Of a stretch of 33,587 nucleotides of DNA, positions 13,365-31,935 are shown one piece after another (positions within the stretch are counted from its first letter, which is position 1; each line of letters opens with the position of its first letter). A model generated the notes under the pieces. That model worked only from the letters and a program-made list of their open reading frames with translations, was not told the origin of the DNA and ran no database searches. Both the position numbers and the translations under genes were made by a program. This DNA is from a virus. Where the stretch lies: positions 1 to 33,587 of the IMG/VR virus record IMGVR_UViG_3300021197_001339; one strand, given 5' to 3'.

Positions 13365-14570
13365 TCACCAAATCAAATCAATTGGTGCGAAGACAATAGT
13401 AAACGACCAAATAGGTTCACCACCCAATTGCGTAAATGTTGCTTTTTGAACAGTTCCTTTAATACCAGCCGCATTTCGTTCGTCAGCGTCAAATTCTACA
13501 TTACCTGCTTCAGCAGATTCGCTTCCTTTTTCCCAAGCCATATATTTGGCTCCCGTTGGCATCCAAAAATTTCTTACATTGTATGCTTCGTTAGGTTGAG
13601 CATGATACAATGAATTAAATGGAATCTGAATTCCCGTAATGTAGTCACCAAATTGATTACCATTTTTACCAATATTTGTTTTACCCTGCCACTTTTCTGC
13701 TGAACCTACGGCTTGAATTCTTGATAAAATTGTAGCGTTATCAGAATTGTTTATGATACCAAACAAATCCATTACTTTGTCACCCGCCGACCTTACACCT
13801 TCGTTTCCTTTTCCACCCGCGAATGTTTTTATCAATGGTAAAATACTAAATTGATTTCTTGCTAAACCAGTGATTAAAGGAGACTGGGTATTTCCTTCTT
13901 TACCGGTTGTTATTTGAGTAATTCTCACTTGTGTATTGGCTTCATCAGTAATTGTTGATGTTTGCAAAACAGCAGTAAATTTTGTCTGCAAAACAGAATC
14001 ATTTGTAATTAAATCAACGAGATTATCTGCTATTTCTGCGTGTGTTCCTTTGACTTCAGAACCTCCTGTGTGTCTGTAAATAGCGATGTAGTAATTACCT
14101 GATGTAATACCAGAATGGTTTGCTACAGCGCCATCACGACTCACCATGCTAATAACGTATGATGTTCCATCGGCAGCAACCAAGGAAATTTTCACTTTGG
14201 CTAATTCAGGATTAGCAGAAGTAATTCTTGTGCTACCAACCAATGTTAGAGAATCAGCGGTTGCATTATCGGGTAACCAATCTTGAGATATAAAATTCTT
14301 TTTGAAATTTACTGAAGTTGAAAAATCAATAGTAGCAAACGCCCCTTGTGCAGAAGACGCACTACTCACAATATTTGAATCGCTCATAATCCCATTGATG
14401 ATAATGGTCGCATTTGATAAATTAAAATCAAAACCAGCGCGCTTACTTCCCGCAAAAGGAAGAGGTATACCGCCTGTTTTTTTCTCAACATCAAGGGCTA
14501 CATCTGTAGCCATGATTTGTGTAATTGTGCCATCACTGTGAACAAGACGAACGGGGATATTTTGAGGCAT
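13365..14570 (-). CDS. Distal tail or baseplate protein candidate
   Basis: A protein of 401 residues whose ATG overlaps the tape measure TGA (TGATG), with GAGGCGAT upstream. The N-terminus is strand-rich (VRLVHSDGTITQIMATD, GFDFNLSNATIIINGIMS). The middle contains regions of Ser/Thr-rich strands and two Gly-rich turns, and the C-terminal part includes IQIPFNSLYHAQPN and QLGGEPIWSFTIVFAPIDLIW-type strands. Proteins following the tape measure usually form the distal tail cap or hub, and the small domain ending WSFTIVF is like a tail-tip beta domain. I do not recognise the family. Its end touches the giant fibre's ribosome binding site, so the two are probably translated together and may contact each other. 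Confidence 0.62.
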   Translation of the reverse strand: MPQNIPVRLVHSDGTITQIMATDVALDVEKKTGGIPLPFAGSKRAGFDFNLSNATIIINGIMSDSNIVSSASSAQGAFATIDFSTSVNFKKNFISQDWLPDNATADSLTLVGSTRITSANPELAKVKISLVAADGTSYVISMVSRDGAVANHSGITSGNYYIAIYRHTGGSEVKGTHAEIADNLVDLITNDSVLQTKFTAVLQTSTITDEANTQVRITQITTGKEGNTQSPLITGLARNQFSILPLIKTFAGGKGNEGVRSAGDKVMDLFGIINNSDNATILSRIQAVGSAEKWQGKTNIGKNGNQFGDYITGIQIPFNSLYHAQPNEAYNVRNFWMPTGAKYMAWEKGSESAEAGNVEFDADERNAAGIKGTVQKATFTQLGGEPIWSFTIVFAPIDLIW

Positions 14571-15625
14571 CAGTATCGCCTCGACATAGTTGAGCCACCG
14601 ACTGAACGGGCTACTTCTTGTTGTATCATGTTCCCAATCTCACGTGCTAACTGACGTTTATCAGTTCTATCGGTAAGACCTGAAAGATTGAATGTCATAT
14701 TGAATGTGCCACCGCCACCACCGCCGCCTTTCATTTCAACAGGAATAGAACGACCACCCGACAGAGGCACGATGGCTTCTGTGCCGTGTAGGATAGCAGG
14801 GTAGCCGCTTGAGGGACCTGATGCTATACCGCCTTGTGAGAAGCCTAAGACGCCACCTACAGTATCACCTACCCCACCAATGAAATCACCAATACCATCT
14901 GTAACAGTAGATATAGCGTCAATAATTGGTTCAAGAATACCCCATACGAAATCACCGAATTCGGCTGCTTTACCCATAACCCAATCCCACATACCGCCGA
15001 TAGGTTCTGAAATATACGTTGTCCAAAGATTTCCGATACTTTCCCAAATACCACTAATGAAATCACCGAAATCGCTGCCTTTTCCTTTGAGCCAATCCCA
15101 AGCATTTCCGACAGGTGTAGTAACCCAAGTGTTCCAAAATTCACCTACACTCTCAAAAATACCACCAACCCAATCACCGAAGGCACTTGCTTTTTCTTTC
15201 ATCCAATCCCATGCGCCGCCAATAGCATCACCAATAGCAGCCATGCCGTCATTCCATGATTCTTTTACAGAATCAACAGCACCCATAATCCAATCTGTAA
15301 AATTACCCCACGGGTCTTCCATGAAAGTTTTGAATGCATCGCGTATTGAAATATACGTGTCACTAAACCAACCTCCTATAGATGAAACAGTTTCTCCTAA
15401 CCAATCAAAAAACGGTTGAAGGGGTTCTACGACTTTTTCTTGCCACTTCACTTTGACCCATTCCCAAGCATCACTGAAAGCATCTTTTACTGCCTTCACT
15501 TTCTCTTTTACATTGTCAATGAATTTGCTAATGAGTTCACCGATTACCTTGAAGCCGGAACCAATGTTATTCAGCATACTCGACATACCCGTAAGCGCAC
15601 CTTGTAATGCTGCCAAACCTGCCAT
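14570..15625 (-). CDS. Tail tape measure protein, short
   Basis: A protein of 351 residues from ATG at 15625, which overlaps the previous TGA and has AAGGAGG seven bases upstream; the TTG one codon earlier is less likely. Residues 1-100 are amphipathic helices with Trp (WEWVKVKWQ, FFDWLGETVSSIGGWF). Residues about 135-240 hold three 37-residue Trp-rich repeats. Residues 255-285 contain FSQGGIASGPSSGYPAIL and HGTEAIVPLSGG, typical of the C-terminal part of tape measure proteins, followed by a Gly-run and an amphipathic helix. Tape measure length sets tail length at roughly 0.15 nm per residue, so the tail might be about 50 nm, short for a siphovirus. It is placed directly after the chaperones, as expected. 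Confidence 0.86.
   Translation of the reverse strand: MAGLAALQGALTGMSSMLNNIGSGFKVIGELISKFIDNVKEKVKAVKDAFSDAWEWVKVKWQEKVVEPLQPFFDWLGETVSSIGGWFSDTYISIRDAFKTFMEDPWGNFTDWIMGAVDSVKESWNDGMAAIGDAIGGAWDWMKEKASAFGDWVGGIFESVGEFWNTWVTTPVGNAWDWLKGKGSDFGDFISGIWESIGNLWTTYISEPIGGMWDWVMGKAAEFGDFVWGILEPIIDAISTVTDGIGDFIGGVGDTVGGVLGFSQGGIASGPSSGYPAILHGTEAIVPLSGGRSIPVEMKGGGGGGGTFNMTFNLSGLTDRTDKRQLAREIGNMIQQEVARSVGGSTMSRRY
14900..15222 (-). repeat. Trp-rich tandem repeat, 37-residue period, in the tape measure protein
   Basis: Three units begin near 15219, 15108 and 14997 (111 bases apart). Each opens with GG/GN then A/M-WDW, followed by a K-rich turn, F-G-D-(W/F), and (I/F)W/FES(V/I)G with a later Trp-Thr. The third unit is degenerate in its second half. 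Period and motif agree with heptad-independent amphipathic helices stacked along the tube. Confidence 0.8.
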
Positions 15626-15906
15626 CAAAAGTCCTCCTTATCCAAAAATCCGTAATCTAATCTTACTGTTTCATTTCCTTTGCTCTTTGCTTTTTGTTGT
15701 TGCACCTTCGCCTGTTCTTGTTGTTCTTCTTCAACTACCAAAGCCCAAGCGAGAGATTGCTTGAAGAGAGTGGGGGGCATTGAATAAACTTCCAACAGCG
15801 AAATACCATAATGCTTCGCCACCCTATATGCTAATCCTTGTAACTGGTATTCAATATCTTCGGGTGTTTCAATTTTTCTTTTTTCAATATACTGCTGCAC
15901 TTTCAA
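15625..15906 (-). CDS. Tail assembly chaperone, C-terminal (gpT-like) part
   Basis: A frame of 93 codons from TTG at 15906. It has no clear ribosome binding site upstream, unlike almost every other gene in the operon; a GTG two codons later is the other possible start. The frame is -1 relative to the previous gene and is open back through the six-G run. I therefore read it mainly as the second part of a fused product, adding about 100 residues (VYQSEQLKVQQYIEKRK onward). It contains helices (LAYRVAKHYGISLLEVYS, LFKQSLAWALVVEEE) and a Gln/Lys-rich segment, ending near a strong ribosome binding site for the tape measure gene. In lambda-like phages the longer chaperone form recruits tape measure protein to the tube. 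Independent initiation at TTG is the alternative. Confidence 0.7.
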   Translation of the reverse strand: MKVQQYIEKRKIETPEDIEYQLQGLAYRVAKHYGISLLEVYSMPPTLFKQSLAWALVVEEEQQEQAKVQQQKAKSKGNETVRLDYGFLDKEDF

Positions 15907-16764: not shown

Positions 16765-19014
16765 TCAATACTTCAAAATTGTATCTCTACAAACAATTTT
16801 TACGGCTTTAGGCATAACCTTCAAAGCCGATTTTATGGCACCTTTATCTTCTGGAATTTGTAGCGGTGCTTCTGTGATGTAATAATCATCAATAATGATG
16901 GACATTTTTTCTCGATTTGCCCCATCGCCATTTTTTGTAAATTCAAGTAGAATTTGATTGCTCGCGCTATTTGTAAATTCAGTTGCTGTTCGCATCTTGT
17001 GGAAGAAGATAGGGTCGTCAACAATAATTTCCATATCCATATTGTATTGAGTTTGACCTTCAACAAGTAGAACGGGATTTCTTGCACCTGAAAATGGAAC
17101 TTGGTCTGTAACTGCTGTGGCTGTAGTATCTGCACCATTAATTGCGTAATGTGTTGTAAGTCCTGTCGCACCGGTTAGTGTGAAACTAACGACTTGACCA
17201 ATAGTTTGACCTGCTAATGTGATAGAACCATTGTAAAACATATACGGTTTTTGTGTTCCCTTTCCAATACCTGAAACATACCGACCAATTTCTGTATTTG
17301 CGGTATCGTCAAACATTTGGTGAGAGCGGTATCGACTACCTCGTATATTCGCTGTAGGTTCCAAACGACCTGTATCGGTGTAACATAGTGCAGAATCGAA
17401 GTTCACGGCCAACTTGAGAGCCGCATCATTGTCGGTTGAAAGTGTCCAATCCTTGACCTTACAACCACGGTATACACGTGTCAATTCTTTACTATCAGCC
17501 GATGAACCATCTGCAACAGATGTATCTCCTTCGTTTACATCACGGCGACGTTGTGAAACTTCAAGACAGAATGAAGGTAATGTGTCCTTTGAATAGAGAA
17601 GATGCTGCACACCTGCGTAAGATGCGTAATGTAGGTTACCTGTGCTACTTGCAGCCGCGCCCGTTGATGGTGCTACAGTTTGAAGATAAGGTGCATTTGC
17701 GACCCATAGAACATCATTATTTGCAATAGCCGACTCTATACCATTTGCTATTGTAAAGTGTGTAGCATCAGGAATAGCAGTTACAACACCGAGTCTATTT
17801 GCAGTTGCAAGAACTAAAGTTCCCGCACCACCACCGCCTGAATCCGGTCCACCGTTATACAGAATATCTCCAACTTTTACTTTGGTTCGTATATCCACTG
17901 TATCAACTGTGATACTTCCATAAGCCGCAGCGGAGCCAACAGCAATAGCACCTGTTGTTTTGACACCTGTTGATGAACCGGTTGGTTTAGGTGTTTGGAA
18001 AATGACTCTTACAGATGATGTTGAGGGGTCATGTGGATATGCCAATGGTTCATCCAAATAAACGATATTACCATTCAAGCCAATAACACGACGATATTCG
18101 TTCGTTTCGCAATTATCAAACAATCCTGAAAATGCTGCCCCGTCCCATGTTGCACCTGAAGGTTCATGGTCACTTACACAAGATGTTGTGGTGGCATCAA
18201 CAATTGCGATGTAATCATCAACAGCGATATTGGTAACAGCATTCAAAGTAACTTGTGAAACACCTGCGGCTTCAGCAGCGGCTAAGTCAAGTTCACCGAA
18301 ACCACTCACAAGCCCAATAGCGGGTGGTGTTTCAACTGCCTCTTTACCAAGACAATACTTCAACCATCGAGCCGTGTGCATATTGACTTCAAATGAGCCA
18401 CCTTCAGTCACGAACTTACCCGGAACTTGAACTGATGTATCTCGACCAAGACCAATTACATGAAATCTCTTCAAATCAACTTTTGTTTCGGGTAGTGTAA
18501 TCGCACTTGCAATACCCAAAAATTGGTCAATTTTACAAGATTCATCACTTGTCAACGCACCTGTTTTTGAATATGCAGAAGCAGTATCAAAGGGTGGTGT
18601 GCAGAAAGGTAAGATTTCAAATCCATCACCGGTTGCAAATGAAACTGCTCCTGTTTTCATAGCAGGTGAAATTGTAATTTGAGTGTGGTCACCAGCGCCT
18701 AATTCCGCTGATGTAGTAGTTCCTCCGGGTCTGAAATCAGTAATTGTAAAAACACGCCCATCAACGTCATCATTTTCAATTAGAGATGATGATGCCGCTT
18801 GGAAGAATACTAATTTTGAACCGATAAGCATACCTCTTGGATAAGCCAAGAAATGATTCACAAGAGGTGAACCTGCTGTGTTACCGGTAATTTGTAGCAT
18901 GGATGAACTAACCGTTGTAATTATTATCGCGCTATTATCATCGGTTAAACGAAGTCCTGTTTCTGATGCGAAAGTAACTTCCGCGAGGTCACCCTTGTAG
19001 ACTGTTGATGGCAT
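16765..19014 (-). CDS. Major tail tube protein, enlarged by insertions
   Basis: A protein of 749 residues; AGGTGA lies six bases before the ATG. Tube proteins are usually 150-300 residues, so this is large. Tube-like sequence appears near 185-235 (VDLKRFHVIGLGRDTSVQVP, then GSFEVNMHTARWLKYCLG) and again in the C-terminal third (YMFYNGSITLAGQTIGQVVS, ARNPVLLVEGQTQYNMDMEI, ILLEFTKNGDGANREKMSI, IIDDYYITEAPLQIPEDKG), the usual split of the tube fold into strands and loop. Between about 235 and 480 lie Gly/Thr/Ala-rich beta insertions, one (VKVGDILYNGG, later GVVTAIPDATHFTIA) resembling the module family of the fibre. The insertions probably decorate the outside of the tail. Tube rather than sheath is favoured, because the neighbours are siphovirus-like and no second tube gene is present. 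Confidence 0.72.
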   Translation of the reverse strand: MPSTVYKGDLAEVTFASETGLRLTDDNSAIIITTVSSSMLQITGNTAGSPLVNHFLAYPRGMLIGSKLVFFQAASSSLIENDDVDGRVFTITDFRPGGTTTSAELGAGDHTQITISPAMKTGAVSFATGDGFEILPFCTPPFDTASAYSKTGALTSDESCKIDQFLGIASAITLPETKVDLKRFHVIGLGRDTSVQVPGKFVTEGGSFEVNMHTARWLKYCLGKEAVETPPAIGLVSGFGELDLAAAEAAGVSQVTLNAVTNIAVDDYIAIVDATTTSCVSDHEPSGATWDGAAFSGLFDNCETNEYRRVIGLNGNIVYLDEPLAYPHDPSTSSVRVIFQTPKPTGSSTGVKTTGAIAVGSAAAYGSITVDTVDIRTKVKVGDILYNGGPDSGGGGAGTLVLATANRLGVVTAIPDATHFTIANGIESAIANNDVLWVANAPYLQTVAPSTGAAASSTGNLHYASYAGVQHLLYSKDTLPSFCLEVSQRRRDVNEGDTSVADGSSADSKELTRVYRGCKVKDWTLSTDNDAALKLAVNFDSALCYTDTGRLEPTANIRGSRYRSHQMFDDTANTEIGRYVSGIGKGTQKPYMFYNGSITLAGQTIGQVVSFTLTGATGLTTHYAINGADTTATAVTDQVPFSGARNPVLLVEGQTQYNMDMEIIVDDPIFFHKMRTATEFTNSASNQILLEFTKNGDGANREKMSIIIDDYYITEAPLQIPEDKGAIKSALKVMPKAVKIVCRDTILKY

Positions 19015-19476: not shown

Positions 19477-19854
19477 TCACTTACGCCCCGTAGATACCAA
19501 TTCACTCTTCTTTACGTCTTTCCAATTGATTGGAATAACTTTTCCATTCTTATATTGCATTTTGTTGTCCGTAAATGTTTCGTGCGGCACACTCAAAATT
19601 GCTTGCTCATGATTCGCTTTGTATTGTTCAGCCATCTCTTCTGACGCTGCCGCACCTGAACCAACGTCTGTGAGATTACCCATCCCGTCTTTTTGCAGAC
19701 CAAGGGATTGGGCCTCAATATCACCCAAGCGATTACTCAACTCTTTGTTGCCTTCTGTCATCAATTGACGAAGTTCTTTTTGGGCTTTAGCATCATCAGC
19801 AATTTCATTTTGAATACACTCATACGCAAACTTAGCATCCTCTTCAGTAATCAT
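19477..19854 (-). CDS. Small helical tail-completion or neck candidate
   Basis: A protein of 125 residues whose ATG overlaps the adaptor's TGA (ATGA); GGTGA lies upstream. Residues 1-55 are charged helices (DDAKAQKELRQLMTEGNKEL, SNRLGDIEAQSLGL), followed by a loop and a short basic C-terminal part (VIPINWKDVKKSELVSTGRK). No motif is recognised. In siphovirus order, one or two small proteins sit between the adaptor and the tail terminator, such as stopper or HK97 gp10-like proteins, which suits this gene. That is an inference from order; sequence alone does not show it. Confidence 0.62.
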   Translation of the reverse strand: MITEEDAKFAYECIQNEIADDAKAQKELRQLMTEGNKELSNRLGDIEAQSLGLQKDGMGNLTDVGSGAAASEEMAEQYKANHEQAILSVPHETFTDNKMQYKNGKVIPINWKDVKKSELVSTGRK

Positions 19855-21671
19855 TCAAACGTCACCACCTCAATGTAGCGCGGAAGATTTCGCTCTACGT
19901 CTGCTTTGTATAATTGAACCTTTGATGTAAGGTCGATATTCTGTGTGCCTTCGGGAATGAGAACACTTCGGTCGTCAGCAAGAAGCAGGTCAATTGCAAC
20001 AAGTTTTGTGCAAATATCCTCAATCGCTTTCTCAAGATACCGCTCACCATAGATGTAAGCCACCTTAATCGCATTCCACTCAAAGAAAGGATAAGAATTG
20101 TTGAAGTAAATGATACCCATTTCGTGGTCACACCACCAATCACGAAGACGGCCAACGTCACCTGCACTGCTACCACCCTGAAGGTCTACCTGAAATGTCG
20201 TTTGTGAAATTGTATGTTGTTTATGAAGCGGGTCATCATCGGCCACTGAAACCAACGTTCCCGCTGAAATCGTAATACTGTTTGTTCCTACGGCAGTTAT
20301 AACACCCACAAGAGTTTCATCTGCTTTGTAAACAGAATCACCTACAGAAAACGAAGTGTCAGCATTTACACCATCGGTTGTCATGGCTGTTGTAGTTCCA
20401 GCAGCATACCCCGGCCCGTTATTGATAAGTGTCCCTGCTGTCAACGTGGCTAAGGGTGTTCCACTTACATTCACACAACCTGTAAACGTGTTTTCTGTCT
20501 TTCCTGTATATCTCAAGACTTCTTCTCCAATTTGCAATAAACCGCCGTTCACAAAACCTGATGTGGAAGCCGTATTGACTGAATCAACAAGATTTGAAAT
20601 TGTCAATGTGGTGCTACTTACAGATGTAAAGATATTTGTTAGTTCAGAACCACCGCCTTGACTAAAGAGAATGTTTGTAGTATCTGTTGTGGCGATTGTG
20701 CAGGTTTCCCCACCCTTCACACCACGCATACTTGTGATTTTTGTAACCCCCGTGCCGTAATCTGAGTTAGATGTAGAAAGGAATTCGTTATTAACGCCGA
20801 CATTTGTAGTGCTACCGGGTAATGTAAAGTTAGGACTGAAGGCTATAGCGGTATTTCCAACCCTATCTTCATTATTAATCAGGTCTGAAAGGGACTGTGC
20901 AGCCGTAGCATCGTCAAAATCTGCTCTCCAATTGGTTGTTCCTGTGCCTACAGTGAGCGCTCCTACACTACCATTACCCGGAGAGAGGTAAATTGAGTCA
21001 CCGGAGAGGGCTGAAATCTCACCGAATTTAACGCGGATTTCAGCACTGCCAATTTCCCTGTAGTCATCACCTTGCCATAATTCGATTCTCAATACCTGCT
21101 GTAGATTTCGGAATAGAAGAGGTGCCGTTCCTACGTAATCTGTGTAGTATCGGCGTCTGTATGGCTTGTAGGTATCGAAATTAATGTATTCACCTGTGAC
21201 AAGATAAGGTCGCCATGCATTGTGTGTAAGGTTGTCAATCTTATCTTGCATGATTTTGATGAGATGTTCTACATGGTTCTTGGTTACACCGCGTGTTCGA
21301 CCATTGGTGAAAGATGCTTGATTTTGTATGTATGCATTATCGGCTACTTGGTAGTTTGCGTGTGTAATAGAATCAGCAAAATTTAATTTTACACCAAGAG
21401 AATCAGTAGTAATTGATGTAATCACCCGTTCGATACCCAATGGGTCTGCATCTGAATAGATAAGAATGGTATCATTGACAGAAAAACCAATGTTTCTGTA
21501 ATCTGAACCCGTAACAAACACACCTGTTGCGGCACTGTCGCCACTGACAAGCACTGCTTCTTGTGGCCCGATGCTCAATAAATCAGCCACTTTCTGTGCT
21601 GACGTATACACAATAGCATCAGGGTCCAAGGGGCGGGTTTCCGCTTCTCCGGGGCTGAATACTACTGGCAA
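19851..21671 (-). CDS. Head-tail adaptor/connector protein with inserted beta modules
   Basis: A protein of 606 residues from TTG at 21671, the only start available because an in-frame TGA lies directly upstream. The two ends look like a head-tail connector: an N-terminal segment with AQKVADLLSIGP, a helical middle near 120-150 (HVEHLIKIMQDKIDNLT), an Arg/Tyr-rich patch (YKPYRRRYYTDYVG) and a helical C-terminal part (RYLEKAIEDICTKLVAIDLL, then KADVERNLPRYI). Between about 240 and 485 lie inserted beta modules: one of the IGEEVLRYTGKT..TFTGC type (about 357-415), and one of the VGDSVYKADETLVG..ITISAGT type (about 426-482), the latter also present several times in the giant fibre. Ordinary adaptors are 100-200 residues, so the insertions probably project outward at the neck. 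Connector assignment is from position and end regions. Confidence 0.68.
   Translation of the reverse strand: MPVVFSPGEAETRPLDPDAIVYTSAQKVADLLSIGPQEAVLVSGDSAATGVFVTGSDYRNIGFSVNDTILIYSDADPLGIERVITSITTDSLGVKLNFADSITHANYQVADNAYIQNQASFTNGRTRGVTKNHVEHLIKIMQDKIDNLTHNAWRPYLVTGEYINFDTYKPYRRRYYTDYVGTAPLLFRNLQQVLRIELWQGDDYREIGSAEIRVKFGEISALSGDSIYLSPGNGSVGALTVGTGTTNWRADFDDATAAQSLSDLINNEDRVGNTAIAFSPNFTLPGSTTNVGVNNEFLSTSNSDYGTGVTKITSMRGVKGGETCTIATTDTTNILFSQGGGSELTNIFTSVSSTTLTISNLVDSVNTASTSGFVNGGLLQIGEEVLRYTGKTENTFTGCVNVSGTPLATLTAGTLINNGPGYAAGTTTAMTTDGVNADTSFSVGDSVYKADETLVGVITAVGTNSITISAGTLVSVADDDPLHKQHTISQTTFQVDLQGGSSAGDVGRLRDWWCDHEMGIIYFNNSYPFFEWNAIKVAYIYGERYLEKAIEDICTKLVAIDLLLADDRSVLIPEGTQNIDLTSKVQLYKADVERNLPRYIEVVTFE
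20225..20395 (-). repeat. Beta module in the adaptor, related to fibre modules
   Basis: Encodes GYAAGTTTAMTTDG followed by VGDSVYKADETLVGVITAVG and ITISAGTLVSVADDD. The closest relative is at 505-700 in the fibre gene, which also begins with GYAAGT and has VGEVIYKADGTKIGTITAVG. The two proteins are otherwise unrelated, so this looks like a shared or transferred domain. Confidence 0.75.
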
Positions 21672-23375: not shown

Positions 23376-24548
23376 TCACTTAAGGTCACGGATTGAACCC
23401 TGACCTCCGAAGAAAGTAGTCCATAGTTCGCCCATTGAGCGATACATACCCTCTTGTCCGAGGCGGTTGATGGCGAATGGGTCGCCAGTTTCAATACCAC
23501 TCTCAAAGTATTGGGTTGGAATTGCTGTGCTGAAGTAGAGGTAGTCAGTGTCGAGGAAATACATTCGACTTAGACCGTCCTTTGTTACGTCCTTGCTTGG
23601 AATGATTGGGACACCGTTGTATGTTGCAACGATGAAACCAGCCTCAAGACCGGGAACACCCTTTACACCGTTGTAGGTTGGGGTGACACGCTTCTCTTCC
23701 ATGAATCGCTGTTGGCTTTGCAATAGTTGCTGTAGACGCATTAGAGTGTCATAGCCAGTTAGGATAACCTTCGGGTTACCACCACGTTCCCAAGTCTGCT
23801 GGAACAAGGTGTCCAAGTGGTCAAGGGAAAGAGTTCGGCGGCTACCTGCTGCACGGTCTGCACCACAGTTTACTTCTGCGTTAGACCAAGAGTTTGCACT
23901 TCGGTCAATGCTGTAAATGTCGAGGTCGGTTGCGCCACAGTGGTCGGTTCCGGCGCTTGCGCCAGTTTCCATTGATGTTAGTCCACCAGATGAACCACCG
24001 TCGTTACCAGTTACTCGGTCGAGTGATTCAAAGTCGTTACCGGCTACGGTTTCGGAATCCTCAAGAAGCATCTTGTTGATATGCTCTGCGTGGTGCTTGC
24101 CCATCTCTTCTTTGAGGACAGCGCGGATGTCACCAAGTCCATCGTCCTTGTCAGCAAGGAACATGGCTGTTTCGCTCATATCGAATGTGTGAACAATCGT
24201 TTTGGGCTTTGCAGCGATGTGCTGGAAGGTAGGCTTGGTTGTGTCTGGTAGGGTTGCGTTCTCAGCAACACCGCCGCCAACAGTGAAGGAAGGTCGTGAA
24301 GTAATAACTCTCCATCCACTTCGCTCCCAAGGGCGCTTTGGTAGAATGCTGAATGCATTGAATTCTTGGTTCAACTGTGACCAAACCTTGCGACCGTAGA
24401 TTGCTTGGTATGTTCCACCAGTTGTGGACAGCATAGGGCTGTCAGCCTTGAGTAGTTCGGAACCGCTGTAGGAATAACCCATAGCGTTCCCTGCGCCGTA
24501 AAAGTAGCGCTCCATGTCAGTTACTGTGCGAATGTAATCTCTTGCCAT
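23376..24548 (-). CDS. Major capsid protein, HK97 fold
   Basis: A protein of 390 residues, a usual size for HK97-type capsid proteins. Residues 1-34 form a short N-terminal segment ending SGSELLK, which could be removed by the protease encoded just upstream. The body shows features of the family: an N-arm and E-loop-like part (residues about 65-100, RPWERSGWRVITSRPSF), an acidic helix region around 120-165 (spine helix, KEEMGKHHAEHINKMLLEDS), a Gly/Ser-rich P-domain segment near 180-200, and a C-terminal half with LILTGYDTLMRL-type A-domain pattern, VPIIPSKDV and YLDTDYLYFSTAIP-like strands near 310-340. It assembles into the icosahedral shell. The start is fixed by a strong GGAGATGATGA element. 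Identification rests on pattern and on the preceding protease; I could not run a profile search. Confidence 0.88.
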   Translation of the reverse strand: MARDYIRTVTDMERYFYGAGNAMGYSYSGSELLKADSPMLSTTGGTYQAIYGRKVWSQLNQEFNAFSILPKRPWERSGWRVITSRPSFTVGGGVAENATLPDTTKPTFQHIAAKPKTIVHTFDMSETAMFLADKDDGLGDIRAVLKEEMGKHHAEHINKMLLEDSETVAGNDFESLDRVTGNDGGSSGGLTSMETGASAGTDHCGATDLDIYSIDRSANSWSNAEVNCGADRAAGSRRTLSLDHLDTLFQQTWERGGNPKVILTGYDTLMRLQQLLQSQQRFMEEKRVTPTYNGVKGVPGLEAGFIVATYNGVPIIPSKDVTKDGLSRMYFLDTDYLYFSTAIPTQYFESGIETGDPFAINRLGQEGMYRSMGELWTTFFGGQGSIRDLK

Positions 24549-24584: not shown

Positions 24585-25979
24585 TCATGCACCTCTAAAC
24601 GACTCATCAGCGAGTCGATGAACTTCATCCCAACTCATGTGGGCGAGGTCTTCAGTGGATGGAATCTGAACGTTGCTTCGGCCTTGTGACTTTGCAATTG
24701 TAGTTGATTCTGTGCTGATGTTGTCAATGCGCTCTCCGAGTGCTTCGATAGCCTTGCTGATTTCAGAAAGTGGGCCGCGAGCATCGAACTGCTGCTGCTC
24801 TTGCTTCTGAACTGCTTGCTGGACTTCACTACTGTAACGCTGTGAGAATTGTTGCTCAAGGTTACCACGGAAGTTCTGCTCTTGTGCTGCTGCCTTGTAG
24901 ACTTCATATGCAGCCTCAATGTCAGCATCAGATACTGTGTCTGCTGTCAAGTAGCCCTTCTTTACGGGGCCAAGAGCGCCCGCAGGGGTCTTTCCACCAG
25001 ATGCACTGACGGCACTGATAGCATTGGTTGAAGGTGAACCGGATTCTTGTCCTCGGCCACGAACTTGACCACCGAAGTAATCTGCACCGTCAACGGAATC
25101 TGGGTTGTCGAATCCACCAAGTTGAGCCTTGTTCAAGTCATCAAAGTGCTGTCGTGCTGCACCTGTGTCTACGCCGCCGCTCTTGAGTGTATTTTCCATC
25201 CATGTAAGGTATTCTGCGGTGATAACATCGCTGTATTCATTACCTTTTTCCATGTTATACATCTTCTCTTCTTTGTCATCTTCTTTGTCATCTTTTTCAT
25301 CTTTTTCTTCAGACATTTCTTTGTCCTCCTTTGGACCGTCATCTTTTCCCTTACCTTCAAGGAAGGCAGGGGGTAGACCTTTCTCCATAGAGTCAAGTCG
25401 TCCTTCAAGTCGTGTCAATACGCTGTTCATTTGTTCCATTACATTTCCATCTGTCATAGTGGTGTCCTCCTTCAATATACGAAAGGATGCTTCGGGATTA
25501 ATCCCTTTTTCACAAATTGTTATTTCGTGAAGTTCAAGTTTACTGATTTCTTGGTAGTCGCCGTGTTCTTTGTCACTCTTTCGCATTCTTTTGAATGCTT
25601 GACCACCGATTGAAAAACCAGTAAGATTACCTGTGCGAATTTCTGAAGCCACTTCGCGTGCCTTCTCAATATCATTTCGCAACTTTACAACAACAAACAT
25701 ACCTGTGTCGTCTACTTCAGACTTCCACATACGCCCGTCATTGTCTGTGTAGGCTGGAATTACAGTTCCAACCTGAATGTTTGAATGTGCGAGTTGAACA
25801 TTAGCGTGTTCGGGTGTTGCCATGAACTTCTTGAAAGCGTCGTTCAATGCGCCGCGTGTAATGAGGTCACCCTGCTTGTCTACCAATTCTACGCTCGCGT
25901 AGCCCGCGACAACCAAATCCTTCCCGCTCTTCAGCAGGGTGATTTGGTCTGGGTTACGCATTCGTAGTTGTCCCAACAT
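24585..25979 (-). CDS. HK97-type prohead protease fused to a scaffold-like C-terminal region
   Basis: A protein of 464 residues; GGTGAT sits three bases before the ATG. Residues 19-170 match the prohead maturation protease family (peptidase S78): VAGYASVELVDKQGD at the start of the fold, candidate catalytic His65 in QLAHSN, Ser123 in TGFSIGG, and acidic residues E149/E152 in LELHEITI followed by the family's typical KGINPEA turn. After about residue 175 comes a long Glu/Lys/Asp-rich coiled-coil region (210-245), then a Gln-rich helical region (370-420), resembling capsid scaffolds. The C-terminus carries MSWDEVHRLAD (448-458), shared with a small head protein encoded upstream. The enzyme would cut scaffold and capsid N-termini inside the prohead. 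LLKS at 15-18 and ILKE at 168-171 are candidate self-cleavage points. The gene precedes the capsid gene, as is usual in this family. Confidence 0.92.
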   Translation of the reverse strand: MLGQLRMRNPDQITLLKSGKDLVVAGYASVELVDKQGDLITRGALNDAFKKFMATPEHANVQLAHSNIQVGTVIPAYTDNDGRMWKSEVDDTGMFVVVKLRNDIEKAREVASEIRTGNLTGFSIGGQAFKRMRKSDKEHGDYQEISKLELHEITICEKGINPEASFRILKEDTTMTDGNVMEQMNSVLTRLEGRLDSMEKGLPPAFLEGKGKDDGPKEDKEMSEEKDEKDDKEDDKEEKMYNMEKGNEYSDVITAEYLTWMENTLKSGGVDTGAARQHFDDLNKAQLGGFDNPDSVDGADYFGGQVRGRGQESGSPSTNAISAVSASGGKTPAGALGPVKKGYLTADTVSDADIEAAYEVYKAAAQEQNFRGNLEQQFSQRYSSEVQQAVQKQEQQQFDARGPLSEISKAIEALGERIDNISTESTTIAKSQGRSNVQIPSTEDLAHMSWDEVHRLADESFRGA

Positions 25980-26018: not shown

Positions 26019-29000
26019 TCAAGAAAATCGAACAGTGGGTTGGTCATCTTCTATATCAAAATCGACGGACTCACCCTCATTTGTGCTTAATTTAGCATGA
26101 GAAATTTTTTCTTTGCCTTTTTCTTTCCGGGGCATTGGTTTTTCGGGGTCTTCAGCGGGTCTTGGGCGCATATCATAGTCCGGTAATGTAGATTGGTCAC
26201 GTAGTTGAGTTGGTCCGCTTGGTGATTCTACGGGTGTAGCCATGTCAATACCCAACCCTTTTCCTCCTGATGATGCCATTCTTTCTTTTGCAATCACATC
26301 TAATGCCCGTAAAGCAACTTCTAACGCTTTTACCATTGATGGTTTGAGAAGGATGTTCTTTTCTTTTTGGTCAAGAACACCAGCGGATTCCCTTTCAATA
26401 CGCTTAGGGTCAATTTTTTTAGGAACAACGTTTATTTCATCGTCTTTATCCATTTTTTCTACATATCCTTTGAGCATCAATGAAATTACAGGTTCCCAAA
26501 ACGGACGAAGGCTTTCAGATAATCTGTATGAATAATTACTCTTTTTTAAATCACCCATAATACAACTTGGATTCTGAAGATACCAAGACTCATTCCATTG
26601 TTTTACTTGATATTCTACAGTATCAATATCTTCCAACATAATTTTAATCACTTTACCGTCAAAATCAATATCATGTGGTATAATTATTGGAGAGTAACTC
26701 TTTGTTAGTAACGAAAGTGATTCGCTACTTGCGGGTCCTTCACCCTGACCTTCTTTGTCAACAGATGTAATTTGAACGTTGAATATATCACGACCACCAC
26801 GTGCTTTCTTTGTTACACCAGATATTGTTGCTTCAACAATATCTCCTTCTTCAAATGGTTTCTCAACACGTTGGGCTGTTCCTATGTCCATGTAATATTT
26901 ACCATCTAATTCTACTGCTCTATTTCCAAGACCTTCATTTGTAAGAATTGGCCCTGCACCTAAACGATAGGTGTAAGGTCCCTTTCCTCGCTTATCAAGA
27001 ATAACAAAATTCATTGTTTTTCCTTCTCTCAAAATTAACCACTTAGGATGTCGTTTTTCACCCTTCATGTATGTTGATTGTGCATCACGTAGTAGAACTC
27101 TACCTTCTTCCTTTAGTTCATCTACTGCACTTTCTAAACCATCAGTATCTGTTACACGTGTGTTGTAAGGACCGGGAATAGAAATTCCATCATGACTCTC
27201 TAATTGTCCACGAAGAATTTTCAAACGCTCATTAGTATTCATATCCGATGAATCTGTTCCGTCATACGAAATAATATCGTGAACAAAGAATTCATCATCT
27301 TTCAAAACACCATCAACAATAAATTCATTGTCACTTAGTTTTGAAGCAGCGTCACGAATTTTCTTTGGGACACCTCTTTTCTTTCCATTTTCATCAAGAA
27401 ATAATGTTTCATTATCCTTAATCAAAAGTAATCGAGTTCCTTCATACCATGTTGAAACGACCCAAGAATCACTAAAACCTTTGAATTCTTTCAAATCATC
27501 GAGAGTGAAAATACGGTGCATGGGACGAATTAATGGAACCCAATCATCCTCACTTGCTTTTGTCAATAATACATCAGGATTCAATAGACTCGCTAAGAAA
27601 TTAGTCATTTCACCGGTTGAAACATCATATGGGTCTGTTGCATGAGGGTCGTCATATCCTCTTTCTCGTAGTTGAGGGGATTTTTGTGGTGTAACACCGG
27701 GTAAGTTCATGATTTGAGTTACATTATTTCCATGAATATCCCTCATCATTTCATCCGATGTTGGATGCACAAGTGTAGGGAACTCATTGGCGGCAAAATA
27801 CCAATTTCCATCTACGCCTATTTCACCATCGAAAGTTGGTGTAACATATCCTGAAGCCCAATCCTGTTCCCCGCTATTCCATACCGGATTGACACTACAT
27901 TGACTTTCGGGTGTAGGTGGAGAAATCGGTCGGTTAGACCATTTAGCCTCCTTTGTCATTTTTTGCTCTTGTGTCGCACCGACACTTTCAACGCCTTCTT
28001 CACCCATTTGTGCTTCTTCAGGATTCAAAACATACAAACTATCAAGATTATTTTGAGTTTTTCTTGTAGCCCTTTTAATGTGTTTTGATTTCAAACCCTT
28101 TACACCGTGTAAATCATTTGAAAGGAAACTCAAACCGTGATTTCCTAACAATGGACTAAACATATCTTGCGCCCTTTGTTCAAATGCACGCGGAACATTG
28201 TGTAATTCATGGTCATTCCATTGGCGTGTTTTTTTGGCTGGATTTGATGCTTTAACACCTTTCTGTCCTACCCTCAATAAATCATGATAATCTGCTCCAT
28301 GAAATGGTGTCAAATCTAAATCATGTGCAGTTGGTAAATTTCCATCTGTAAGAAGAGAATGCATAGACGCAACACGGAAGGGTTGGTTCATTTCATTTGA
28401 ACGGCGTATAATTTCATTCACGTGTTCTTTGTGCTTTGGTGTAGTTGGTAATCCCAATAGTTCCAATGCTTCGGTATCAGTCATGTTTCCGTGAATCTCC
28501 GCACCGTGATTCAAAAGATGATTTGCAATTTCCGCATAATCACTACCTGATGTTAGACCTTCTACATTAGGTATTTCAACATCATCAACACCATAAGCGT
28601 GTGAATGCAAACCATGAGAATTATGTTCTTGCATGAGAAGACTTCGTTCTGCTAATTTAGCCAACTGTCCCATATCATGAGTAAACTGCATTTTGTCATC
28701 TTCGGGGAAAGAATGTGGAACGGCTTCCTTAATTTGTGGAAGTAGAATTTTCATCATTTGAGTAATGGCATTATTGTCTCCTTCTAATTTTGCATCACGT
28801 TGTTTGGCTCTATCTTCCCAAAAACCAGATTTAGATTTTGGTTGCATATTACTTGCTTCTGTTTGCATAGTAAACAGAAGACCTCGTAATTCTTTGATTT
28901 CCTGTTGAAGATTTAGAATACCCTCAGGTGACATTTCACCTACTTCTTTTTCTTTGTCGAGTTGTTGTTCACGTATCATCAATTCTTTTGCCGTTTCAAT

Positions 29001-31922
29001 CTCTTCAGGTAATGAAGCACCGTAAGCGCCCATACCCAAAAATTGCTGTATGTTCCCCAATTGTTGTTTTTTCTCACCCAAAAAACGTTCTTCTGCTTCT
29101 TTTGGTGTTTCTTGGTCAATTGTGTCGGGACTTAAATGACCTAATTCATTCATTAATTTTGAAACGTTTTCTTGCTCGATAGCCGGTAAATCGGTATAAT
29201 CACCATCATTTAGATATTGAGCAATTTGATGCGGATTTCGTGTTCCCAAATGTCGTGCGATGACACCCAAAGAGTTCACATATTCTCTTTCCAAACCTTC
29301 AGGAATATTAGGCGGATTTTGTAATGATGTTTCACGATAATCTGAATAGCCGATAAAATTCAAGAAATCATCTAAATTATCACCTGTGGATAATGGTATA
29401 CCATATGATTGCATATTTTTAAGATTATGAAGTTTTTTCTTTTGCGGCTCTTCAAATGGTCGAATATGACCCAATGCTGTTCGGATATGATGGTCTATCA
29501 TCGCTTGTCTATGTGACATTTTATCTGACGCGCCTTCACCATAGGCTTGTTCAGAAGTCGAAAATGTATCTTCCATGTGCGGAATAGGAAGAACATAACC
29601 ACGCTTACCCATAATTTCTTCATGTTCTTTAGGACTTCTTGATAAAAGATAATTTGAGTATTTACCACTTGTAGAACTTTTGTGGTCAGTAAAATTGTTT
29701 TTAATCGAAGAACCTTCACCAAGAAGATTACCATTACTGTCGTGCTTTACCTGTGTAATATCACCCGGTGAAAGAACGTGAGAAGGGTCCATTATCACGG
29801 GTTTTTTGACGAGGTTTTCCTCTCCCTTTTCACCTTGTGATAAATCCATAACTTTCTCTACGCTATGAGGTTTTACATATGGAGCGACTAAACTTGCTAT
29901 AGAATTCAAATTTTTATTCACCAAGAGTTTTCCTGTATTGGAGTCTAATTCACCAAAAATCGACTTGCCCGTTTCTGGGTCCATCATCATATGATGAATA
30001 AATTCTACATATGTGGCTAAATTTCTTCCTACTCCACCAACTTCAGCAAAAGGCTCCCACCAATGTGAACCATGTGTTGTGGTATGTGTTCCATCTGAAC
30101 TTTCATCATACAAACCATCTTCATTTTCTTCAGGTCTTGGACCGAATCTTGAACGTTTATTTCCAAGTATATTCCGTATATCTTTTGATAATGCTGAAGA
30201 AGATTCGTAACTTTTTGCAGCCGAAATTGCATCATCTAAATGTTCTTTCGGAATAAGAGGTCCTTCTGTTTCACCATACATTGGATGTTGTTCCATCCAT
30301 TCTTCTGTTTGGGGATGATAACCCGCTAAGAATAACAAATCTTCTTTTGATATTTTTGTATGATTTTTTCCATCAGGTGTTTTCAAAACACTATGTTTAC
30401 CCGATGGAAGGTATGTTTTGTGATTACCTAAACCGATTTTTTTCACATTGTTCCAATCATACGAATCTTCTGCTTTAGCCCATTCTTCGGGATTATGAAA
30501 ATTAAATCGTGGTAATACATCAAGTAGACCGTCTTTATTTGATAGTGGTTCACCTGTTACATTATGAAGAATCTGCTCCCCTTCATTTTTGTGACCTTTC
30601 GGGTAAGTTTGAGGTGTGTCATATTTATCATGCATTTGATGTATTCGTTCCAAGATTACATCTGCTATGGATTGTCCATTGTAATTTGCAACCTCAGAAT
30701 CATGCACTGCGGTATTCAAACCACCTTGAAGGAATCTATTTTCTCCTGAAACAAAATCTCGTTCATTATCTTCAATAAACTTGTGGAAATTTGGCGAATG
30801 CGTCGAAACACCACGATGCCACCAATTAATTTCAGGTGTCATACGCTCCATAGCATTGAAAGCAAAACGAGCCTGTGGAAGAGTAGTTCCATCGGGTAAT
30901 TTGATGAGTTGGCTATCTTCATTTACATTTCCTTTGTTTTCTAAATGGTCTAAAACTGCTGTTCGTTCTTGCGGTGAAAGCCATTCCATACCAAGCATAT
31001 ACCCTGCCCAACCTAAACCATGACCGTGATGTTTTCCTTTTTTACCACCTTGTTCTACTTCTTTGAATGCTTGGTCGTAAGAAAATTCTTCATCTGAAGT
31101 AGGCTCAAATGTTACATCTTCACCTTCCCATTCATCAGCACGACTATTGAAATGCTCTTTTCTCAAATCATGAGAATCATCAATGTTTCCATGACCATTT
31201 TCTAATTTCCAACGTCGAAAATCACGTTCATACAAATCATGATTTGAAGAGTAAGCACCACCTAAAGCACCTCCAAAAAGATATTTTCGTTTACCTTTGA
31301 CATTATGACCAAAAACAACAGGACTCTTGTTTTTTACAGCATGGTCATGCCACTCTTTTTCTTTTTTTGCAGTATCTTCTACTTTGGTTTTTTCTCCTTC
31401 TTTTGAAGGAAGATACATTCTTTTCAAATGTTCAACATATCTTCTTCTTTTTGTAATAGCATCTCTTCGCAATAATGGGTATGTTTCTTCTCTAAATGGG
31501 TGTCTATTGTGGTAAGCCTCACCGGGTGAAGAAATAATATCGGGCCAAACTGCGTGTCTAATTCCTCTTTCATCTGTATTGGGAAATTTGTCAACCCACG
31601 GGTGCCTTGAAGGTTCACTACTCGCACCTTCTATTCCAACGGCTACAGGGGCCATTGGTTTTGAATAAATATGTGGCACTGCTGAGTCATCGGGGTCTAC
31701 CCACTTTTCTTTAGGTGTTTCTTCATCTTCATCTTTCAAAAGAAGGACATTCATCGCCATACTTTTGCAAACCAAAGTCAAGGGGTCATTCGGTTTTACA
31801 TTTAGATTGGCTAAAGCCATCATGTATTCAGCAGCATTACGCTCTAAATCCAAACCGTCATCAACTGACTTCAACAGTTGAATTCTTCTGAAAAGAAATA
31901 GATTTGAAGGGTCGGCCAACAC
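26019..31922 (-). CDS. Giant capsid-module protein with degenerate DNA ligase-like and OB domains
   Basis: About 1967 residues counted from GTG at 31922, chosen because GGTGAT lies just upstream with usable spacing; a TTG at 31928 overlaps that element. Residues 1-1450 match no family I recognise: His-, Asp- and Asn-rich, mostly polar, with helical and coiled-coil stretches around 950-1060. Residues about 1456-1640 follow the layout of ATP-dependent DNA ligase adenylation domains, and about 1645-1735 look like the OB fold. However, motif I reads W1492-Y-E-G-T-R where ligases have K-x-D-G-x-R, motif III has DGV (V1539) instead of DGE, and motif IV reads EGRVLL (E1606) without its lysine. It is therefore probably not an active ligase. 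The C-terminus is Pro/Lys-rich. Position before the protease and capsid genes suggests a virion or prohead protein, perhaps one that holds or is ejected with DNA. LLTK motifs flank the ligase-like part. Confidence 0.85.
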   Translation of the reverse strand: MLADPSNLFLFRRIQLLKSVDDGLDLERNAAEYMMALANLNVKPNDPLTLVCKSMAMNVLLLKDEDEETPKEKWVDPDDSAVPHIYSKPMAPVAVGIEGASSEPSRHPWVDKFPNTDERGIRHAVWPDIISSPGEAYHNRHPFREETYPLLRRDAITKRRRYVEHLKRMYLPSKEGEKTKVEDTAKKEKEWHDHAVKNKSPVVFGHNVKGKRKYLFGGALGGAYSSNHDLYERDFRRWKLENGHGNIDDSHDLRKEHFNSRADEWEGEDVTFEPTSDEEFSYDQAFKEVEQGGKKGKHHGHGLGWAGYMLGMEWLSPQERTAVLDHLENKGNVNEDSQLIKLPDGTTLPQARFAFNAMERMTPEINWWHRGVSTHSPNFHKFIEDNERDFVSGENRFLQGGLNTAVHDSEVANYNGQSIADVILERIHQMHDKYDTPQTYPKGHKNEGEQILHNVTGEPLSNKDGLLDVLPRFNFHNPEEWAKAEDSYDWNNVKKIGLGNHKTYLPSGKHSVLKTPDGKNHTKISKEDLLFLAGYHPQTEEWMEQHPMYGETEGPLIPKEHLDDAISAAKSYESSSALSKDIRNILGNKRSRFGPRPEENEDGLYDESSDGTHTTTHGSHWWEPFAEVGGVGRNLATYVEFIHHMMMDPETGKSIFGELDSNTGKLLVNKNLNSIASLVAPYVKPHSVEKVMDLSQGEKGEENLVKKPVIMDPSHVLSPGDITQVKHDSNGNLLGEGSSIKNNFTDHKSSTSGKYSNYLLSRSPKEHEEIMGKRGYVLPIPHMEDTFSTSEQAYGEGASDKMSHRQAMIDHHIRTALGHIRPFEEPQKKKLHNLKNMQSYGIPLSTGDNLDDFLNFIGYSDYRETSLQNPPNIPEGLEREYVNSLGVIARHLGTRNPHQIAQYLNDGDYTDLPAIEQENVSKLMNELGHLSPDTIDQETPKEAEERFLGEKKQQLGNIQQFLGMGAYGASLPEEIETAKELMIREQQLDKEKEVGEMSPEGILNLQQEIKELRGLLFTMQTEASNMQPKSKSGFWEDRAKQRDAKLEGDNNAITQMMKILLPQIKEAVPHSFPEDDKMQFTHDMGQLAKLAERSLLMQEHNSHGLHSHAYGVDDVEIPNVEGLTSGSDYAEIANHLLNHGAEIHGNMTDTEALELLGLPTTPKHKEHVNEIIRRSNEMNQPFRVASMHSLLTDGNLPTAHDLDLTPFHGADYHDLLRVGQKGVKASNPAKKTRQWNDHELHNVPRAFEQRAQDMFSPLLGNHGLSFLSNDLHGVKGLKSKHIKRATRKTQNNLDSLYVLNPEEAQMGEEGVESVGATQEQKMTKEAKWSNRPISPPTPESQCSVNPVWNSGEQDWASGYVTPTFDGEIGVDGNWYFAANEFPTLVHPTSDEMMRDIHGNNVTQIMNLPGVTPQKSPQLRERGYDDPHATDPYDVSTGEMTNFLASLLNPDVLLTKASEDDWVPLIRPMHRIFTLDDLKEFKGFSDSWVVSTWYEGTRLLLIKDNETLFLDENGKKRGVPKKIRDAASKLSDNEFIVDGVLKDDEFFVHDIISYDGTDSSDMNTNERLKILRGQLESHDGISIPGPYNTRVTDTDGLESAVDELKEEGRVLLRDAQSTYMKGEKRHPKWLILREGKTMNFVILDKRGKGPYTYRLGAGPILTNEGLGNRAVELDGKYYMDIGTAQRVEKPFEEGDIVEATISGVTKKARGGRDIFNVQITSVDKEGQGEGPASSESLSLLTKSYSPIIIPHDIDFDGKVIKIMLEDIDTVEYQVKQWNESWYLQNPSCIMGDLKKSNYSYRLSESLRPFWEPVISLMLKGYVEKMDKDDEINVVPKKIDPKRIERESAGVLDQKEKNILLKPSMVKALEVALRALDVIAKERMASSGGKGLGIDMATPVESPSGPTQLRDQSTLPDYDMRPRPAEDPEKPMPRKEKGKEKISHAKLSTNEGESVDFDIEDDQPTVRFS

Positions 31923-31935
31923 ACACAATCACCGC

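What the first reader, a model, noticed from the sequence alone, without database searches (positions are those of the whole stretch)
27000..27570. A DNA ligase fold without its catalytic lysine inside a capsid-operon giant protein
Residues about 1456-1735 follow the order of ATP-dependent DNA ligase motifs and OB fold (WYEGTR at 1492-1497, FIVDGV then HDIISYDG, EGRVLL near 1606, KWLILREG). The motif I lysine is Trp, the motif III Glu is Val, and the motif IV lysine is Leu. Several catalytic positions are lost while the fold remains readable, which suggests selection for a non-catalytic role such as gripping DNA in the capsid, plugging the portal, or travelling with the genome. The motif positions come from established ligase knowledge; the role is inference.
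Basis: partly seen in the sequence, partly recalled or inferred. Interest (0 to 1): 0.78.

Follow-up and report, generated by a model that had tools for sequence, protein, structure and literature searches.

The report
Dead ligase fold in magrovirus head protein
A 1,969-residue protein made next to the capsid genes of a marine archaeal virus contains a complete DNA-ligase fold whose ATP-joining lysine is gone in every relative examined, so the 'DNA ligase' credited to these abundant ocean viruses is probably a non-enzymatic part of their head-building machinery.

Summary
Residues ~1455-1728 of the 1,969-aa ORF (26019-31928, minus strand) form an ATP-dependent DNA-ligase fold (nucleotidyltransferase plus OB domain): AlphaFold pLDDT 86, VIA-align Z 20.9 to P. 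furiosus ligase over 262 residues, and profile E 3e-7 to Thermococcus ligase. The catalytic lysine is Trp1494. Among 144 distinct relatives (23 clusters at 70% identity, down to ~31% identity) the nucleophile column is never Lys (W/Y/M/F/L/I). The motif III Glu and first motif V Lys are always lost, mostly to hydrophobic residues.

The virus is a magrovirus relative. The giant protein lies between portal and maturation protease/MCP, and its ligase-like domain is its most conserved part. It is present in every magrovirus head module tested that had enough upstream DNA. None of 40 records (8 of at least 100 kb) has another ATP-ligase match. Published 'ATP-dependent DNA ligase' annotations of magroviruses therefore probably refer, at least in clade A, to this non-catalytic domain.

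Best reading: an ancestral ligase module exapted as a non-catalytic binding/structural part of a minor head protein. Fold, residue loss, conservation and synteny are shown; virion location and DNA binding are inferred.

The parts
26019..31928 (-). giant head-module protein, 1,969 aa (TTG start), between portal-side genes and the maturation protease
   Evidence: 52 full-length relatives of more than 1,650 aa; synteny
26742..27572 (-). ligase-like domain, aa ~1453-1728: nucleotidyltransferase subdomain plus OB fold
27432..27449 (-). motif I WYEGTR; Trp1494 (codon 27447-27449) in place of the catalytic Lys
27306..27323 (-). motif III FIVDGV; Val1541 in place of the catalytic Glu
27258..27281 (-). 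motif IIIa HDIISYDG (Asp1551 invariant; the adenine-stacking aromatic position is His)
27021..27107 (-). motifs IV-V EGRVLLRDAQSTYMKGEKRHPKWLILREG; Arg1614 for motif IV Lys, Ile1632 and Arg1634 for the motif V lysines; STYM-GE-RHPKW nearly invariant
26742..27010 (-). OB-fold part of the ligase-like domain (approximate limits)
   Evidence: AlphaFold secondary structure; VIA-align model range 13-302 on 2cfm
26166..26408 (-). conserved C-terminal segment aa 1841-1920 (GKGLGIDMATPVESPSGPT), no known relatives
24585..25979 (-). head maturation protease with a long C-terminal tail
   Evidence: PHROG head maturation protease, E 2e-13
23376..24548 (-). HK97-type major capsid protein, nearest isolate Haloarcula tailed virus HVTV-1 (35%)

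Best explanation
The segment descends from an archaeal-type ATP-dependent DNA ligase (nucleotidyltransferase plus OB domains) that was fused into, or grew within, a large minor head protein of magroviruses, the tailed viruses of marine Poseidoniales archaea. The three charged residues that hold and attack ATP (motif I Lys, motif III Glu, first motif V Lys) were all replaced, almost always by hydrophobic residues, before the sampled viruses diverged. The domain therefore should not form an enzyme-AMP intermediate, and its ATP pocket has probably closed into a core. What is kept is the two-lobed shell and the polar loop between motifs IV and V (STYM-GE-RHPKW), together with HRIF upstream of motif I. 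The most likely job is a non-catalytic binding module, for the packaged DNA near the portal or for a head protein partner, made with the capsid and acting during head assembly or genome packaging. Shown: fold, residue loss, conservation, synteny, and co-inheritance with the capsid protein. Inferred: presence in the virion, the binding partner, and the step at which it acts.
For: Fold: AlphaFold on a 62-sequence alignment gave pLDDT 86.4, pTM 0.79; Foldseek best 4eq5, E 2.1e-12; VIA-align Z 20.9 to 2cfm, 3.4 A over 262 residues. Sequence: profile E 3.3e-7 to 4eq5. Loss: 144 distinct domains, 23 clusters at 70% identity; nucleophile column W84 Y20 M14 F12 L12 I2, motif III Glu column I/V/M/T/A/L, first motif V Lys column L/M/V/I, motif IV R139 K4 C1. 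Selection: domain dN 0.128 against 0.49-0.64 in the three segments N-terminal of it for window vs L003 (0.156 in the C-terminal segment), dN/dS about 0.075 for window vs L002; 48 invariant columns in 302 aa against 21 in the other 1,667. Head module: portal and TerL upstream, protease and MCP downstream. Capsid-anchored sample: 69 of 79 new loci have the domain, 7 lack the DNA, 3 are other viruses. Domain identity tracks MCP identity, Mantel r 0.86, 0 of 999 permutations. No other ATP-ligase match in 40 records and no NAD-ligase in 18.
Against: No virion proteomics or binding data. The domain is net acidic in most relatives, which does not favour general DNA binding. The remaining ~1,650 residues match no known fold or family by sequence (N- and C-terminal segments), so placement in the head rests on gene order alone. 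An invariant Lys1457 in the flexible linker just before the domain leaves a small opening for an unconventional active site.
Confidence: 0.62

Rival explanations
1. It is a working ligase with a shifted or alternative nucleophile: the Lys one residue before the usual place (SKWYDG) or the invariant linker Lys1457, giving the virus its own nick-sealing enzyme.
For: Lys at -1 in 77 of 144 relatives; Lys1457 invariant in 132 of 132 relatives with a residue there; ICTV reports list an ATP-dependent ligase among magrovirus replication genes (PMC10768690, PMC12999244); no other ligase match in these records.
Against: The -1 residue is Thr in the window clade and Ala/Val/Leu/Ser/His and others elsewhere. 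Motif III Glu and the first motif V Lys are lost in 144 of 144, so ATP and metal coordination is gone too. HMMER aligns W/F with the canonical Lys without a gap.
Confidence: 0.07
2. The dead fold keeps a ligand-binding pocket and binds a nucleotide, cap-like structure or DNA end without chemistry, as snurportin-1 uses a dead capping-enzyme fold (own knowledge).
For: An aromatic residue sits at the nucleophile position in 116 of 144, which could stack on a base; weak Pfam hits to the snurportin cap-binding domain in 4 of 62 relatives, best 0.0026.
Against: The position is also Met/Leu/Ile in 28 of 144, and the adenine-stacking position of motif IIIa is mostly Ile/Val, so a conserved base sandwich is not evident. 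The Pfam hit of the window segment is far below its cut-off.
Confidence: 0.15
3. It is an injected (ejected) polyvalent protein: the giant protein travels in the head and enters the cell, and the ligase-like domain acts in the host, for instance as a decoy that shields incoming DNA ends or nicks from repair enzymes.
For: HVTV-1 has a large multidomain protein at a comparable place (gp115, annotated zeta toxin, 1,313 aa), and giant multidomain proteins by the portal are often ejected in phages (own knowledge).
Against: No sequence match between the giant protein and HVTV-1 gp115; no toxin or other effector domain recognised in it.
Confidence: 0.13
4. The resemblance to ligase motifs is chance, or the ORF is an assembly artefact.
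For: The window segment alone is just below the Pfam cut-off (23.7 against 26.2 bits).
Against:: independent profile and fold matches to DNA ligases. The same fusion occurs in 52 full-length relatives from many separate metagenomes.
Confidence: 0.01

Closest known systems
Archaeal ATP-dependent DNA ligases (P. furiosus 2cfm, T. sibiricus 4eq5; Pfam PF01068)
   Same: Nucleotidyltransferase plus OB fold; order of motifs; DGxR of motif I, Asp of motif IIIa, and the STY-G-R-KW loop between motifs IV and V.
   Different: No catalytic Lys, motif III Glu or first motif V Lys; motif IV Lys is Arg; no N-terminal DNA-binding domain of the usual kind seen; embedded in a ~1,970-aa protein of the head operon.
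Magrovirus 'ATP-dependent DNA ligase' in published genomes (order Magrovirales)
   Same: Probably the same gene: a read on a group A magrovirus contig spans a ligase gene and the prohead protease gene (PMC7318539), the arrangement seen here.
   Different: In the papers read it is listed as a replication or DNA-metabolism gene (PMC10768690, PMC12999244, PMC10160649); here it lacks the catalytic residues and is part of the head module.
HVTV-1 / Druskaviridae head module
   Same: Related MCP (35%) and protease (31%), same portal-to-MCP region; a large protein at the comparable position.
   Different: HVTV-1 has no ligase-like domain by profile in the 33 kb examined (best score 5.9 bits, E 0.44), and its large proteins are not similar to the giant.
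Snurportin-1 m3G-cap-binding domain
   Same: Precedent for a dead covalent-nucleotidyltransferase fold reused for binding (own knowledge); marginal Pfam hits.
   Different: Related to capping enzymes rather than DNA ligases; no matching ligand residues shown here.

Membership tests
ATP-dependent DNA ligase (PF01068) | Nucleotidyltransferase plus OB two-domain fold | tested here: met
   Model pLDDT 86.4; Z 20.9, 262 residues aligned to 2cfm across both domains
ATP-dependent DNA ligase (PF01068) | Motif I catalytic lysine (KxDG) | tested here: not met
   Trp1494 in the window; never Lys in 144 distinct relatives
ATP-dependent DNA ligase (PF01068) | Motif III glutamate | tested here: not met
   Val1541; I/V/M/T/A/L in 144 of 144
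ATP-dependent DNA ligase (PF01068) | Motif IV lysine | tested here: not met
   Arg1614; R in 139, K in 4, C in 1 of 144
ATP-dependent DNA ligase (PF01068) | Motif V lysines (KxK) | tested here: not met
   Ile1632 and Arg1634; first position never K in 144, second mostly R
ATP-dependent DNA ligase (PF01068) | Curated Pfam score | tested here: inconclusive
   Window 23.7 bits against cut-off 26.2; 14 of 25 relative records exceed it
ATP-dependent DNA ligase (PF01068) | Nick-sealing activity | not testable with these tools
   Needs biochemistry
mRNA capping enzyme (PF01331) | Curated Pfam score and catalytic Lys of KxDG | tested here: not met
   17.7 bits against 29.6; no Lys; PDB and viral fold rankings are led by DNA ligases
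Snurportin-type cap-binding domain (PF21974) | Curated Pfam score | tested here: not met
   14.1 bits against 27
Magrovirus head module | Portal, protease, HK97 MCP and TerL in one block, with PolB, ERCC4 nuclease and thermosome elsewhere in the genome | tested here: met
   (TerL, portal, PolB, ERCC4 and thermosome in relatives; protease and MCP in the window)
Known virion injection or MuF-type minor head protein | Recognisable MuF, transglycosylase or toxin domain in the giant protein | tested here: inconclusive
   No Pfam, PHROG or PDB match outside the ligase-like domain; middle segments were not searched as profiles and no fold was predicted for them

The most novel reading that the evidence does not exclude
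A whole order of abundant marine archaeal viruses builds its heads with a protein containing an ancient, universally dead DNA ligase whose ATP pocket has turned hydrophobic. The ligase shell is reused as a DNA-end or portal-proximal clamp, a kind of virion component not described before as far as the literature searched here shows, and these viruses have no ligase of their own.
Probability: 0.3. Interest if true: 0.78.

Novelty: new variant of a known kind. Interest (0 to 1): 0.62.

Why it matters
It shows a replication enzyme fold captured by a capsid operon and kept, without its chemistry, as the best conserved part of a giant head protein across a widespread group of ocean viruses. It also bears on published statements that magroviruses encode an ATP-dependent DNA ligase and so replicate with little host help: the only ligase match found in 40 records lies in this non-catalytic domain, so nick sealing probably depends on the host. 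Both points can be tested directly with a purified domain of about 300 residues.

Tried and rejected
A first AlphaFold run with 11 close relatives failed (pLDDT 53) and was replaced by one with 62 relatives. Single-sequence phmmer of the domain against PDB found nothing; profiles did. No relatives in the isolate phage collection (only E above 1) or in the 84,980-species genome collection (17 pattern matches, none confirmed), so no provirus or host copy was found. PDB profile searches of the N-terminal 440 and C-terminal 227 residues found nothing convincing; Pfam found nothing in the N-terminal part. The idea that the giant contains the portal was rejected: relatives have a separate portal gene. 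A homologous giant in HVTV-1 was rejected. Caution on ascertainment: the first relatives were found through the patterns RPMHRIF and STYM(K/R)GE-RH, so invariance of those stretches was partly built in; the capsid-anchored scan removes that bias for the loci it found. Reference magrovirus records ON649702, OR863078 and PP497040 are not held, and the original 2017 magrovirus paper is not in the library.

Full report
What is in the sequence. The minus-strand ORF 26019-31928 encodes 1,969 aa. The window is a 33.6-kb virus record. Its neighbours are a head maturation protease (24585-25979), an HK97-type major capsid protein (23376-24548) and a tape measure protein (14570-15628). The capsid protein is closest to haloarchaeal tailed viruses, 35% to HVTV-1.

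Which virus. Relatives reach 107 kb and carry family B DNA polymerase, an ERCC4 nuclease, a thermosome, TerL and a separate portal gene. By established knowledge and the literature (PMC10160649, PMC10768690) this is the profile of magroviruses, the viruses of marine Poseidoniales. Gene order in relatives is TerL, an HNH-like gene, portal, three small genes, the giant gene, protease, MCP.

Is it a ligase fold? Yes. The segment alone gives PF01068 at E 4.5e-5, just under the curated cut-off. 60 of 62 relatives match the same family, best 7e-8, and several relatives pass the cut-off. A profile of 11 relatives finds archaeal DNA ligase 4eq5 in the PDB at E 3.3e-7. AlphaFold with 62 relatives gives pLDDT 86.4 and pTM 0.79. 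Foldseek's best PDB match is 4eq5, E 2.1e-12. VIA-align gives Z 20.9 to P. furiosus ligase, rmsd 3.4 A over 262 residues, covering both the nucleotidyltransferase and OB domains. Capping enzymes rank lower.

Is it dead? Over 144 distinct domains in 23 clusters at 70% identity (minimum pairwise identity about 31-32%), the nucleophile column is W84 Y20 M14 F12 L12 I2. The motif III Glu column is I106 V30 M3 T2 A2 L1. The first motif V Lys column is L97 M22 V19 I6. Motif IV is R139 K4 C1. The three charged ATP-pocket residues have thus been replaced together, nearly always by hydrophobic ones; that this closes the pocket is inference. A Lys one residue before the nucleophile occurs in 77 of 144, but is Thr in the window and other residues elsewhere, so it is not a general replacement. 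Loss before the divergence of the sampled viruses is the simplest reading.

Is it kept by selection? The domain is the most conserved part of the giant. 48 of 302 columns are invariant in 52 full-length relatives, against 21 in the other 1,667 residues. Between the window and L003, dN is 0.128 in the domain and 0.49-0.64 in the three segments N-terminal of it (0.156 in the C-terminal segment). Between the window and L002, dN/dS is about 0.075. Near-invariant positions include Lys1457 in a flexible linker, HR-F at 1471-1474, Trp1489, Asp1551, Arg1568, Arg1573, and the run Asp1615, Tyr1620, Met, Gly, Glu, Arg, His, Pro, Lys, Trp1630. The first searches used patterns from RPMHRIF and STYMKGE, so part of that invariance is ascertainment. 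A scan anchored on the capsid protein instead gave 79 new loci: 69 have the domain, 7 start too close to the capsid gene to show it, and 3 are other viruses with divergent proteases and no giant. The domain follows the capsid protein in evolution (Mantel r 0.86 over 131 loci, 0 of 999 permutations).

Do these viruses have a real ligase? In 40 records, including 8 of at least 100 kb, every PF01068 match lies in the giant reading frame; one 100-kb record has no PF01068 match although its giant domain is found by the family profile. None of 18 has an NAD-dependent ligase. ICTV profiles list an ATP-dependent DNA ligase among magrovirus replication genes (PMC10768690, PMC12999244). [quoted passage not shown]), the junction seen here. 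It is therefore likely, at least for clade A, that the published ligase is this domain. The reference genomes are not held here, so this is not proven.

How it may work. The best-supported reading is exaptation: the two-lobed ligase shell and its motif IV-V loop are used for binding, not chemistry, in a minor head protein made between portal and protease. The likely partners are DNA near the portal or another head protein. The domain's net negative charge in most relatives argues for a specific contact rather than general DNA coating. Rivals are a ligand-binding pocket as in snurportin, an injected protein, and an unconventional active ligase. The last is unlikely because three catalytic positions are lost together.

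Novelty. A ligase fold in a head operon is not among the described virion components that I know of or found in the library, but the library holds only open papers. The gene itself has evidently been seen and annotated as a ligase; what is new is its catalytic loss, its universality in magrovirus head modules, and its place in the head block.

Noticed in passing
window aa 1449-1458 of the giant (about 27555-27584, minus strand): Lys1457 in the motif LLNPDxLLxK, in a low-confidence linker directly before the ligase-like domain, is invariant in all 132 distinct relatives with a residue there; it could be a maturation-protease site or an interaction peptide.
   Followed up: partly
window 26166-26408 (-): C-terminal segment aa 1841-1920 of the giant (GKGLGIDMATPVESPSGPT...LPDYD) is almost as conserved as the ligase-like domain and has no PDB relative.
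   Followed up: partly
window 23376-24548 and 24585-25979 (-): The capsid protein starts about 70 residues later than that of HVTV-1 (window residue 6 aligns with HVTV-1 residue 75), while the protease has a tail of about 290 residues, which suggests that the scaffold is fused to the protease.
   Followed up: no
window 2-13360 (-); 4,684-aa ORF at L117:5935-19989: An ORF of at least 4,453 aa runs off the window end; a relative has a 4,684-aa ORF in its own record. PHROGs names no family for the window ORF; probably a tail fibre or adhesin.
   Followed up: no
L113:2348-3292, L113:3402-4430, L119:8105-8533, L115:18532-19182: Several otherwise different magrovirus proteins begin with the same N-terminal pattern (M-x-PF-x-x-AW-x-x-LK), as if sharing a sorting or assembly signal.
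   Followed up: no
window 16765-19014 and 19851-21671 (-): Two tail-region proteins match single HVTV-1 proteins (gp128, gp125) in two separated pieces, implying inserted domains of about 270-300 residues.
   Followed up: no
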